DNA of 52,157 bases from an archaeon (GTDB taxonomy: Archaea; Nanobdellota; Nanobdellia; SCGC-AAA011-G17; PNOQ01). The DNA lies in NCBI GenBank assembly GCA_018652475.1, contig JABICB010000010.1, forward strand, positions 1-52,157. Direction: 5' to 3'. The number at the start of each line of letters is the position of its first letter. The first letter of the stretch is position 1. Shown here piece after piece: positions 26,958-52,157 of the stretch. A model generated the notes under the pieces. That model saw nothing but the letters and a program-made list of their open reading frames with translations, was not told the DNA's origin and did no database searches. The position numbers and the translations under genes were made by a program.

Positions 26958-27494
26958 ATGAATAAATTGTCTAAAGTTATGGGTGTTGGAATTCTAGCTA
27001 GTAGTTTGATTTCTAATGTTTATGCCAAGGAAAGGCCTTCAATAAATTATTTCTATGAAGAAATTATTTCTATGAATAATGATTATGTTGGGGGAGGAAA
27101 TAGTGTTTCAGATCAAATTGAAGAAGATTATCTTGAAATCGTGGGCACTATGGTTGGGCTGGAACTAATTGATTTATTAAAACCTCACTGTAAACGAATT
27201 TTAAAAAAGAATAAAATTCCAAAGGATCACTCATTTGAGATGGGAAGTTCTAAAGTTGAATTGAATCTTAACAATGTAGTTGATGCTAATCTTAGTTTGG
27301 AGTCAAATTTATTCGAATTAAATACTACAATAACTAATAATATTGAAACTAGACTTAATATAAATGACTTTAAGTTTGGAATAGATTATAATATCTCTAA
27401 AAATTGTTTAATATTTCCAATTAATAAAAATTTCAAATTTTATAAATATTTAGGCAGGAATAATATAGAATTGAAGTTTCATAAAAGTTTCTAG
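26958..27494 (+). CDS. exported beta-rich protein, hypothetical
   Basis: 178 residues. Signal peptide MNKLSKVMGVGILASSLISN ending VYA-KERP (classic A-x-A cleavage). The mature part has helices in the middle and then alternating beta-strand patterns (SKVELNLNNVVDANLSLESN, LFELNTTITNNIETRLNI), ending IELKFHKSF with a terminal Phe. The TATA-like TTTATAAG at 26930 is 28 bases upstream. It resembles the next gene in signal peptide, strand pattern and aromatic end, so the two may be diverged relatives. Confidence 0.6.
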   Translation: MNKLSKVMGVGILASSLISNVYAKERPSINYFYEEIISMNNDYVGGGNSVSDQIEEDYLEIVGTMVGLELIDLLKPHCKRILKKNKIPKDHSFEMGSSKVELNLNNVVDANLSLESNLFELNTTITNNIETRLNINDFKFGIDYNISKNCLIFPINKNFKFYKYLGRNNIELKFHKSF

Positions 27495-27528: not shown

Positions 27529-27867
27529 ATGAATAAATTAAAAACTTTCTTAGCTACTGGATGTTTTCTTGGAAGTTTATACTGTACTAGTCCCATTCTT
27601 GCCGAAGAAAATACGGCACAAAAAGATACTATAAATATTGATAAAACAAATGTCGAATTTAAAATTGATAATTTGAGCGATTATCCTTTTTATAGTAATT
27701 TTTTCGATAGTAAACGAAGTTGGATTGAGTATGACTATAATTCCTTGAATGATTTTAATGGAGAAGTTAGAGTAAATGAACTTGAGAAAAAATTATCAAA
27801 AGATTTTGATTTTTTTATTAAATCTAAACCTTATGAAGTTAATGTCGGAATACGATTCAACTTTTAG
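27529..27867 (+). CDS. exported small beta-rich protein, hypothetical
   Basis: 112 residues. Signal peptide MNKLKTFLATGCFLGSLYCT followed by SPILA-EENTA. The mature part is acidic and aromatic with short strands and ends EVNVGIRFNF, a terminal Phe preceded by alternating hydrophobic residues like the closing strand of a beta-barrel. TATTTATATAA at 27497 lies 22-32 bases upstream of the ATG (leaderless). It follows the similar exported gene by 34 bases with its own promoter. No family recognised. Confidence 0.55.
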   Translation: MNKLKTFLATGCFLGSLYCTSPILAEENTAQKDTINIDKTNVEFKIDNLSDYPFYSNFFDSKRSWIEYDYNSLNDFNGEVRVNELEKKLSKDFDFFIKSKPYEVNVGIRFNF

Positions 27868-41734: not shown

Positions 41735-42763
41735 ATGAAAATTAAAGTATTTTTTATAGTGTTAATAATTCTTTTTTCAATTGGAATCGTTTCTTCTGGA
41801 AAAGTAGGTAGAGTTTTTGTTGAAAATAAAGAAGAAACTGGCCTTTATTCTTCACACGCTAATCAATTGATACCTGCTACTATTTATAAAACTGCAAATG
41901 TTAGTGTTGCAACCTATAATATTCTTAATTTTCCGGGTTCTACTGGTGCTGATCGTGTTTTTTATTTTAGGCAAATTATGGATGAAATGGATGTTGACAT
42001 TTTAGTTGTTCAAGAAATGTTAAATCAGGGTGGTGTTGATTTATTCCTAGATGAAGTTCTTAATTATCATGAAATTGAATATTCTGCCTCCGACTTTATC
42101 AATGGTCCAGATACTGATAATGTTATTTTCTTTAAACACGATGTGGTCACCCTTGTAAATTCTGAACAAATTGAAACTGAATTGAGAGACATATCAGAAT
42201 ATAGTTTTGTTTTAAATCGTAAGCCTAATTTTGAGTTTGTTATTTATTCCTTACATCTTAAGGCTAGTCCGGGTGGAACTAATGGAAATAAACGATTTTT
42301 AGAAATCTCTGAGTTAGATGAACATATTGAAAATCCCTATTCAATAGTTTTAGGTGATTATAATATCTATAAGTGTTCAGAATCTGCATATCAGAAACTT
42401 ATTAATGATTTTTCTGTTGAGTTATATGATCCTATAGATGAATGTGGTAACTGGCATGATAATCCTGATTATGCTGAAATTCACACTCAATCAACTAGAA
42501 CAACTCAGTTTGGAGGAGGAGCAAGGGGTGGAATGGATGACAGATTTGATATCATACTTTTATCTGATATTTTTGAAGACTCCCATTGGATGAAATATAT
42601 TGAAGGATCTTATTTTGCTTTTGGAAATGATGGGCAACATTTTAACCAAGCTGTTAATGAAGGAGAAAATGATAATATTCTTGATGCACTACATTATGCT
42701 TCTGATCATTTGCCAGTAGTTGTTACTTTCGAATATACTTATTATCGTAGGCCTTTCTTTTAA
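41735..42763 (+). CDS. secreted endonuclease/exonuclease/phosphatase (EEP) family protein
   Basis: 342 residues. Signal peptide MKIKVFFIVLIILFSIGIVS-SGK. EEP (DNase I-like) motifs: VATYNILNFPG (Asn metal ligand), DILVVQEM (Glu metal ligand), VIYSLHLKAS (catalytic His region), VLGDYNIYK (GD-x-N) and the end ASDHLPVVVTF (DH). Exported magnesium-dependent nuclease or phosphodiesterase, possibly scavenging nucleotides from host or environment DNA. The short C-terminal tail YYRRPFF is unusual. Substrate cannot be decided from sequence. Confidence 0.88.
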   Translation: MKIKVFFIVLIILFSIGIVSSGKVGRVFVENKEETGLYSSHANQLIPATIYKTANVSVATYNILNFPGSTGADRVFYFRQIMDEMDVDILVVQEMLNQGGVDLFLDEVLNYHEIEYSASDFINGPDTDNVIFFKHDVVTLVNSEQIETELRDISEYSFVLNRKPNFEFVIYSLHLKASPGGTNGNKRFLEISELDEHIENPYSIVLGDYNIYKCSESAYQKLINDFSVELYDPIDECGNWHDNPDYAEIHTQSTRTTQFGGGARGGMDDRFDIILLSDIFEDSHWMKYIEGSYFAFGNDGQHFNQAVNEGENDNILDALHYASDHLPVVVTFEYTYYRRPFF

Positions 42764-50441: not shown

Positions 50442-51191
50442 ATGGAAATAAAACTAGATAAAATATACGAATCCCAACGTTCTGAAAATCAAGATATAGT
50501 CGATTTTGATAAGAATCATAAAAAAAGACCTTCATGGGTTAAGGCAGATTTAGATAAAAAAATAATATTTATAAAAATATTAGTTGATGGAGAGGCATTC
50601 TGGTATAGGAGATATTTTGAAAATTTTTATTTTATTTTTGAACCTACTTCTGAAGATTATAAAAATTATTATAATGAAATTGCTGATAAATATGAACAAT
50701 ATGTCCCATATAATAAAAAACTTGTAGGAAAATTATTAAATTTCTTTAATGAATTAAATATTAGAAAATCTGCTAAAATATTAGATGTTGGATCAGGTAC
50801 TGGAATTGTTACGGAAGGCATTGTGAAGGGAGGATATTCAAATATTACTTTGCTTGATCTCTCTGAAAATGAATTAAATATTGCTAAAGCTAAGGGTATT
50901 TTAAAAAATGCAAACTATCAAAATATCGATTTAACACAGGAGGATATTGAAGGAAAATTTGATTTAATTTTCGGAACTATGTCCCTAGAATATTTCAAGG
51001 GCGAAAAAATGGTAGGTGTTCTTAAAAAAATCCATAATGCTCTTTCCGAAAAAGGTAAAGTTATTGTGATCGATAGGCATATTTATTCAGAATTTAATGA
51101 ATTTTTTAAAGAAATTGAAAATGGAAAATTTGAGTTAGAAACTCCTGATGGAACTTACGATTATTTTTATTATGTTGGTGAAAAGAAATGA
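50442..51191 (+). CDS. SAM-dependent methyltransferase, C-terminus frameshifted
   Basis: 249 residues as read. The first 65 residues are a small beta-rich domain (KKIIFIKILVDGEAFWYRRY), followed by a class I methyltransferase: motif I ILDVGSGTG (113-121), motif II LLDLSENELN, motif IV LIFGTMSLEY and post-I helices. The frame stops at TGA 51189-51191 after GEKK, shortly after a run of A. Deleting one A in 51186-51188 would let it continue for 54 more residues to 51351. Methyl acceptor unknown. Confidence 0.8.
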   Translation: MEIKLDKIYESQRSENQDIVDFDKNHKKRPSWVKADLDKKIIFIKILVDGEAFWYRRYFENFYFIFEPTSEDYKNYYNEIADKYEQYVPYNKKLVGKLLNFFNELNIRKSAKILDVGSGTGIVTEGIVKGGYSNITLLDLSENELNIAKAKGILKNANYQNIDLTQEDIEGKFDLIFGTMSLEYFKGEKMVGVLKKIHNALSEKGKVIVIDRHIYSEFNEFFKEIENGKFELETPDGTYDYFYYVGEKK

Positions 51192-51351
51192 TATATTATC
51201 AAAATTAAGAGAAGTGGAAATTGTATCAATATTTTTTGTAAGTGATTTATTAATTGAAGATAACTGGGAACCAGGATTCCACAAAGTAGATTATAAGAAA
51301 AACATGCATGATGTTTTAGATTTGAGTATAGAATTTCTTCAAGAAATTTGA
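51189..51351 (+). pseudogene. detached C-terminal part of the methyltransferase
   Basis: In the next frame, NDILSKLREVEIVSIFFVSD then LLIEDNWEPGFHKVDYKKNM and HDVLDLSIEFLQEI follow directly on from the methyltransferase. The stretch has the composition and secondary structure of the normal last strands and helix of such enzymes and has no start codon of its own. It is best read as the original C-terminus separated by a one-base insertion (sequencing error, recent mutation or programmed slip). Confidence 0.65.
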
Positions 51352-51355
51352 ATGA

Positions 51356-52157
51356 TTATTTATTTGAGTTTAATGTTTCATGTATTATTGGAATAGTATT
51401 ACCTTTATCATCCTTAAATTTCTGATAATAATCTGAGGGATTGTTGTATAAATTCCCCCAATCTACTATGGTCGTGTCACTTACTGCACTCCGAGTATTA
51501 ATTATTGAAACTGATGCGTGTCCAGGAATATCATTCATTAAAATTTCAATACCCTCCAATCCTAATTTTTCTTTTGCATTACCCAATAGTATGCTTGTGA
51601 ATATTGCTTTTTCGTAACAAACAGATTTACCTTCAAAAAGCATAGTAGATAGTTCTGGAGCAATAAACATTAGGGAGCTGTGATGACCTTCCTTGGAAAA
51701 CATAGTATTAAGCATCGAGGTTACCTTGCCCAGTATCCCCTTCCTTAGATATGGCTTTGACCATGCCTCCCATTTTTCAGTCTTATCTTCTGTTTTTATC
51801 GCCCTATCATGATCATAATCAAATAAATCCCATGCAACTATTGTTGTTGTTTCTGCAATGACATAAAATGTTTCTAATGGGTCATCTATTTCTTCACTCA
51901 TAACAGTACCCATTATATCATTCATTAAAATCTCCGTATTTTCCCCTATATTTACACTTAAGGATCCGGCACCTACATCATAGCCCCCCATACCAGTTGG
52001 ATCAATTAAATTTAATGGATTATTATTAACATAAGAATAAGCATGATTTTCTTTTACTGGATCAACTGAAGTAAATCTTCCTGATTCAGAATCATAATAT
52101 CTAGCGCCAAAATAGTATAAGTTACTTTCATCTAATTCTTTTCCGGTTGCAAAACTA
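51356..52157 (-). CDS. RHS-repeat core protein with a transglutaminase-like C-terminal domain (5' end beyond the window)
   Basis: About 266 residues are visible, open to the window edge. The upstream-most part is the RHS core: GKELDESNLYYFGARYYDSE, then SGRFTSVDPVKENHAYSYVN and NNPLNLIDPTG. After the PTG, where polymorphic toxins usually change domain, comes a 210-residue domain. Counting from the Met at 51991, it has SVCYEKA (Cys125), PGHASVSI (His158) and IVDWGN (Asp177), the Cys-His-Asp order of transglutaminase-like/papain-like folds. A 17-base repeat encodes EILMNDI twice in this domain. No immunity gene is evident downstream. Confidence 0.7.
   Translation of the reverse strand, partial: SFATGKELDESNLYYFGARYYDSESGRFTSVDPVKENHAYSYVNNNPLNLIDPTGMGGYDVGAGSLSVNIGENTEILMNDIMGTVMSEEIDDPLETFYVIAETTTIVAWDLFDYDHDRAIKTEDKTEKWEAWSKPYLRKGILGKVTSMLNTMFSKEGHHSSLMFIAPELSTMLFEGKSVCYEKAIFTSILLGNAKEKLGLEGIEILMNDIPGHASVSIINTRSAVSDTTIVDWGNLYNNPSDYYQKFKDDKGNTIPIIHETLNSNK

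What the first reader, a model, noticed from the sequence alone, without database searches (positions are those of the whole stretch)
51356..52157. RHS-core protein carrying a Cys-His-Asp C-terminal domain
The C-terminal domain after the RHS core has Cys125, His158 and Asp177 in order and spacing suited to a transglutaminase- or papain-like enzyme. RHS proteins in bacteria deliver variable C-terminal toxins. An archaeal version with an enzymatic tip would be a contact-dependent effector or surface-processing enzyme not often described in DPANN archaea.
Basis: partly seen in the sequence, partly recalled or inferred. Interest (0 to 1): 0.72.

Follow-up and report, generated by a model that had tools for sequence, protein, structure and literature searches.

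The report
Secreted mini-RHS protein, transglutaminase-like tip
The edge of this window holds the end of a gene from a large family of short secreted archaeal proteins that keep one shared RHS core and swap unrelated end domains; the end domain here looks like a cysteine enzyme of the transglutaminase kind, so these tiny, probably host-dependent archaea seem to carry a set of exchangeable extracellular effectors.

Summary
Window 51359-52156 (minus strand) encodes 266 residues cut by the contig end: the last part of an RHS core, then a 211-residue tip with Cys125, His158 and Asp177 (Cys125 is its only cysteine). Two homologous tips were found, one in another archaeal family (also on a secreted RHS-core protein) and one in the same genus; Cys, His and Asp are invariant in all three. 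Two of the three have Pfam DUF553 (transglutaminase-like) as best hit, at or just under its cut-off. AlphaFold without relatives was uninformative (pLDDT 32), so the fold is unproven.

The larger finding is the family around it. Seven of nine genomes of this GTDB family carry 4-10 RHS cores, mostly in 350-480-residue proteins: signal peptide, one RHS core with no room for the usual cage, and an almost always unrelated tip. At matched chromosomal sites, flanks and core are conserved but tips are not. In this genome 141 identical bases of core lead into two unrelated tips.

Best reading: a cage-less, secreted, tip-swapping effector family in Woesearchaeota-like DPANN archaea. Toxicity is inferred. 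No immunity gene sits beside this tip; candidates elsewhere are only leads. New variant of a known kind.

The parts
51992..52156 (-). C-terminal part of the RHS-associated core (SFATGKELDESNLYYFGARYYDSESGRFTSVDPVKENHAYSYVNNNPLNLIDPTG); the 5' part of the gene lies beyond the contig end
   Evidence: TIGR03696 64.1 bits, cut-off 32.5; second search places it at 51989-52147
52017..52157 (-). 141 bases identical to the end of contig C16 of the same genome, where a different tip follows
   Evidence: first 120 of 120 bases identical, identity ends 21 bases into the next 60, chance-level (19-21 of 60) after that; longest exact match within the reading frames 140
52061..52063 (-). Asp of the first DP motif of the RHS core (SVDPV)
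   Evidence: invariant in A1 and A8
52001..52003 (-). Asp of the second motif, DPTG, equivalent of the catalytic Asp of Rhs autocleavage (D1338 in Photorhabdus Rhs1)
   Evidence: invariant in A1, A2 and A8; role from PMC8636562
51356..51991 (-). Variable tip, 211 aa plus stop: transglutaminase-like (DUF553-like) domain
   Evidence: DUF553 E=8e-4, 19.3 bits, cut-off 20.5; homologues L075 and L169
51617..51619 (-). Cys125, predicted nucleophile (SVCYEK)
   Evidence: invariant in all three homologues
51518..51520 (-). His158 (GHASVSI)
   Evidence: invariant in all three homologues
51461..51463 (-). Asp177 (IVDWG)
   Evidence: invariant in all three homologues
50442..51191 (+). Convergent neighbour: SAM methyltransferase (Methyltransf_25), not a candidate immunity gene; probably continues by a frameshift into the 67-aa ORF 51148-51351
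   Evidence: Pfam 2e-12; overlap of the two ORFs

Best explanation
The feature is the 3' end of a gene for a short secreted RHS protein: signal peptide, about 100-130 residues of linker and RHS core, and an exchangeable C-terminal enzyme domain. Shown: the core, the tip, the conserved Cys-His-Asp set, the multi-copy family, and replacement of tips next to a conserved core at fixed chromosomal sites. Inferred: the protein leaves the cell by the Sec route; the core, keeping the aspartates used for self-cleavage in bacterial Rhs proteins, presents or releases the tip; and the tip acts outside the cell as a thiol enzyme (peptidase, amidase or transglutaminase) on proteins or envelope of a neighbour or host. 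Selection favours tip diversity and the conserved core DNA is the recombination handle. It therefore works like a polymorphic effector system, but without the closed RHS cage that normally encloses the toxin.
For: Tip homology and invariant Cys/His/Asp; DUF553 best hit for two tips. Seven of 9 genomes of the family carry 4-10 RHS cores, against 8 of the other 94 genomes of the order. Every family copy whose N-terminus is held has a hydrophobic signal-peptide-like start. Intact own-genome copy: 372 aa. All tips unrelated by BLAST except three sorting-tail tips; three more share part of the tip. Site 1 in three genomes: flanking genes 75-91%, N-terminus plus core 50-56%, tips 2-7% (z -0.9 to 1.5); two more sites alike. 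141 identical bases then unrelated tips in this genome. Both DP aspartates kept.
Against: No toxicity or secretion data. No immunity gene at this tip, and convergent neighbours elsewhere are mostly ordinary genes. This gene's own N-terminus is not in the assembly, so signal peptide and short length are inferred from relatives. The DUF553 score is just under the curated cut-off and L169 does not hit it. Structure models are low confidence. Two genes in one genome (L040, L042) have longer RHS stretches.
Confidence: 0.6

Rival explanations
1. Not a toxin: a set of secreted surface or processing enzymes and adhesins used for attachment to a host or envelope remodelling. The tips vary because hosts or partners vary; no killing and no immunity are involved.
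For: No immunity gene next to this tip; some tips are FN3 plus sorting-tail-like rather than enzymes; DPANN lineages generally depend on partners (established knowledge).
Against: Near-complete lack of similarity between tips at one orthologous site is more typical of conflict systems; several tips look like hydrolases by eye; at site 1 the convergent gene changes together with the tip.
Confidence: 0.28
2. An ordinary full-length RHS toxin whose cage-coding part is simply missing from the contig.
For: The window gene is cut at the core; long RHS stretches exist in genome G007 (L040 874 aa, L042 750 aa, both 5' open).
Against: The intact copy in the same genome is 372 aa and nearly all intact copies in the family are 340-480 aa with the signal peptide close to the core; the mini form is also seen in L075.
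Confidence: 0.08
3. A decayed or chimaeric remnant: the tip joined to the core by assembly error or in a pseudogene.
For: The gene lies at a contig end inside a repeat; L169 shows that such genes do decay (core lost, frame broken).
Against: The tip frame is open over 211 codons with its catalytic residues conserved, and an independent intact gene (L075) joins the same core type to the same tip type. The contig carries archaeal housekeeping genes.
Confidence: 0.04

Closest known systems
Bacterial RHS polymorphic toxins (e.g. T6SS-delivered Rhs1, PMC8636562; Tox-TGase and Tox-PL tips in Zhang et al. 2012, PMC3482391)
   Same: RHS core with conserved DP...DPxG motifs followed by an exchangeable C-terminal domain; transglutaminase/papain-fold tips with C, H, D are listed in the 2012 survey.
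   Different: About 100-130 residues before the tip and a signal peptide, instead of a shell of roughly 1,000 residues and a T6SS or other delivery part; no linked immunity gene here; the carrier is a DPANN archaeon.
Archaeal RHS toxins of Methanosarcina acetivorans
   Same: RHS core in an archaeon; the control search finds it.
   Different: Described as classical stalked RHS toxins with toxin and immunity cassettes (PMC3482391), against single-core secreted proteins scattered around the genome.
Pfam DUF553 (PF04473), transglutaminase-like domain
   Same: Best hit for the window tip and for L075; Cys, His, Asp in the same order.
   Different: Just under or at the curated cut-off; here a C-terminal tip of an RHS protein.
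Nanohaloarchaeal SPEARE proteins (PMC6642349) and woesearchaeal peptidoglycan-attack genes (PMC9723730)
   Same: Proposed DPANN partner-attack factors.
   Different: Very long single proteins or separate enzymes; no RHS core and no tip exchange is described in the passages read.

Membership tests
RHS polymorphic toxin system | RHS-associated core domain | tested here: met
   TIGR03696 64.1 bits against cut-off 32.5
RHS polymorphic toxin system | Unrelated C-terminal domains after a conserved core, exchanged by recombination | tested here: met
   141 identical bases then unrelated tips; orthologous sites with conserved flanks and core and unrelated tips
RHS polymorphic toxin system | Conserved aspartates of the self-cleaving C-terminal plug (two DP motifs) | tested here: met
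   Asp of both motifs invariant in A1 and A8; catalytic role taken from PMC8636562; cleavage itself not testable here
RHS polymorphic toxin system | Long YD-repeat shell that encages the tip | tested here: not met
   Intact relatives, including one in this genome, have mostly 95-140 residues before the ARYY motif; for the window gene itself the 5' part is missing
RHS polymorphic toxin system | Cognate immunity gene next to the tip | tested here: not met
   Next gene is a convergent methyltransferase; candidates at other loci are only leads
RHS polymorphic toxin system | Toxic activity of the tip | not testable with these tools
   needs expression
Transglutaminase-like (DUF553) | Score above the curated Pfam cut-off | tested here: not met
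   19.3-19.4 bits against 20.5; the L075 tip reaches 20.5
Transglutaminase-like (DUF553) | Cys, His, Asp in that order and conserved | tested here: met
   invariant in three homologues
Transglutaminase-like (DUF553) | Papain-like fold with Cys at a helix start and His, Asp on adjacent strands | tested here: inconclusive
   the model shows helix 124-143, strands 148-155 and 158-165, but pLDDT is 32

The most novel reading that the evidence does not exclude
A lineage of host-dependent DPANN archaea has reduced the RHS toxin to a cage-less secreted module and runs it as a multi-site arsenal in genomes of about 0.5-0.8 Mb, changing tips, and at some sites a convergent membrane or lipoprotein gene that would serve as extracytoplasmic immunity, by recombination at the core.
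Probability: 0.35. Interest if true: 0.82.

Novelty: new variant of a known kind. Interest (0 to 1): 0.62.

Why it matters
How DPANN archaea act on their partners is largely open. A compact, secreted, tip-swapping protein family that occupies several sites in genomes this small points to strong selection on interactions, supplies about 40 candidate effector domains, most without any Pfam match, and asks whether an RHS core can work without its cage. The transglutaminase-like tip, with three conserved catalytic residues, is directly testable.

Tried and rejected
(1) L039 (G007) looked by eye like a third homologue (GHAVISI, WGRYY) and was first placed in alignments A3 and A4; a profile without it gives E=0.078 and pairwise alignment does not align the Cys, so it was dropped; statements that rely on A3 or A4 are not used. 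(3) Structure of the mini-RHS core from 37 sequences: pLDDT 61, pTM 0.40, plug region below 50: not used. (4) PDB profile search, made with A3: only ribosomal-protein noise at E about 0.7. (5) Viral contigs and plasmids: no relatives of the tip. (6) Convergent genes as immunity genes: many are housekeeping genes in a compact genome, so only site 1 is kept as a lead. (7) The key 2019 survey of archaeal polymorphic toxins (Makarova et al., mBio) is not in the library, so priority could not be checked against it.

Full report
What is there. The window is a whole contig (G000:C4) of a 0.53-Mb, 20-contig draft genome, 92% complete. It carries archaeal housekeeping genes by eye (split rpoB, TFB-like factor, EF-1 alpha, EF-2). 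At its right end, minus strand 52156-51359, lies a 266-codon frame open at the contig edge. Its first 55 residues are the end of an RHS-associated core (TIGR03696, 64.1 bits, cut-off 32.5).

What the tip is. The best Pfam hit is DUF553, transglutaminase-like, 19.3-19.4 bits against 20.5. A search of 371 genomes of the phylum gave one homologue, L075, in another family of the same class: a 361-residue protein with a signal-peptide-like start, one RHS core and the same tip, BLASTP 9e-12. Its tip alone reaches 20.5 bits for DUF553. A two-sequence profile then found L169 in the same genus (E=2.3e-5). There the first 58 or so codons of a mini-RHS gene run into the tip with the core lost and the frame changed, so it looks like a decayed gene. 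Across the three, C125, H158 and D177 (and the following Trp-Gly) are among 23 invariant columns. L169 itself does not hit DUF553. The AlphaFold run without relatives puts Cys125 at the start of a helix and His158 at the start of a strand, as this fold would, but at pLDDT 32 it carries no weight. I take the tip to be a thiol enzyme of the transglutaminase/papain kind, at about 80% confidence, by inference.

What surrounds it. The same genome has five RHS cores, four of them at contig ends, each with a different tip. The one intact gene codes for 372 residues: signal peptide, short linker, one core, tip. In the GTDB family, 7 of 9 genomes have 4-10 cores; in the rest of the order 8 of 94 have any. 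Every family copy whose start is held begins with a strongly hydrophobic stretch. The distance from start to the ARYY motif is mostly 95-140 residues, against about 1,400 in many bacterial hits of the same search. A barrel like that of Rhs1, residues 420-1262 (PMC8636562), cannot be built from this; that is an inference.

Tips are exchanged. BLASTP among all tips finds only three related ones (FN3 plus sorting-tail type), and a further three share part of the tip next to the core. At site 1, between a TrmB-like gene and a TrpRS-like gene (names by eye), three genomes of two genera keep the flanks at 75-91% and N-terminus plus core at 50-56%, while tips are 2-7% identical with shuffle z-scores of -0.9 to 1.5. 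Two more sites shared by G004 and G008 behave the same way (core 64-72%, tip 4-8%). In this genome the window contig and contig C16 share 141 identical bases that end within the core, after which similarity is at chance. Assemblies of related MAGs are labelled k141, so this length is probably the assembler's overlap: the reads hold one core sequence leading to two tips, in two loci or in two strains. The data do not say which.

How it may work. Export by signal peptide, presentation or release of the tip by the core, and action outside the cell. The two DP motifs are conserved; in Photorhabdus Rhs1 the second holds the catalytic Asp of self-cleavage, and cleavage is needed for toxicity (PMC8636562). 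Whether this happens without a cage is unknown. Without a cage the producer would be exposed to its tip mainly after export, which fits a target absent from its own surface or a surface-located immunity protein.

Immunity. Next to this tip lies a convergent methyltransferase gene, not an immunity candidate. At site 1 the convergent gene overlapping the tip's end differs in all three genomes and each copy begins with a membrane-anchor or lipoprotein-like stretch. That is a lead from one site only; many other convergent neighbours are ordinary genes.

Known or new. Polymorphic toxins with RHS cores and transglutaminase or papain tips are known from bacteria, and RHS toxins from Methanosarcina (PMC3482391). 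DPANN partner-attack candidates of other kinds are published (PMC6642349, PMC9723730). Searches of the held library found no paper that describes RHS proteins of this kind in DPANN archaea, but the main survey of archaeal toxins is not held. I rate it a new variant of a known kind.

Noticed in passing
L041:3446-4060, L046:3393-3998, L073:289-864: Three mini-RHS tips in three DPANN genomes end in a domain that scores above the cut-off for the Bacteroidota T9SS type A sorting domain (TIGR04183, 26-30 bits, cut-off 23).
   Followed up: partly
L039:4895-5419, L047:4824-5195, L057:4776-5429: At one orthologous site the gene convergent with and overlapping the tip differs in each genome and starts with a membrane-anchor or lipobox-like stretch: candidate immunity genes in convergent orientation.
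   Followed up: partly
L169:1107-1845 (G001:C9): Mini-RHS gene with the core deleted and the frame changed, leaving the signal-peptide start and a transglutaminase-like tip: a decay stage of the family.
   Followed up: partly
window 50442-51351: Methyltransferase ORF and the overlapping 67-aa ORF 51148-51351 look like one gene with a frameshift near 51180; its last residues recur on contig C5 (72-81% over 21-25 aa).
   Followed up: partly
L043:4992-5588: Secreted protein convergent with a mini-RHS tip that by eye resembles an L,D-transpeptidase (YkuD-like), unusual for an archaeon.
   Followed up: no
window 41735-42763: Secreted protein that by eye resembles an endonuclease/exonuclease/phosphatase family nuclease, possibly for scavenging extracellular DNA.
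   Followed up: no
window 26958-27494 and 27529-27867: Two adjacent small secreted proteins ending in Phe with an alternating strand-like pattern, similar in look to the tip at G000:C16 (L074).
   Followed up: no
L051 and L059 tips: HExxH motifs suggest metallopeptidase tips; other tips look by eye like NlpC/CHAP or SleB-type hydrolases but have no Pfam match above cut-off.
   Followed up: partly
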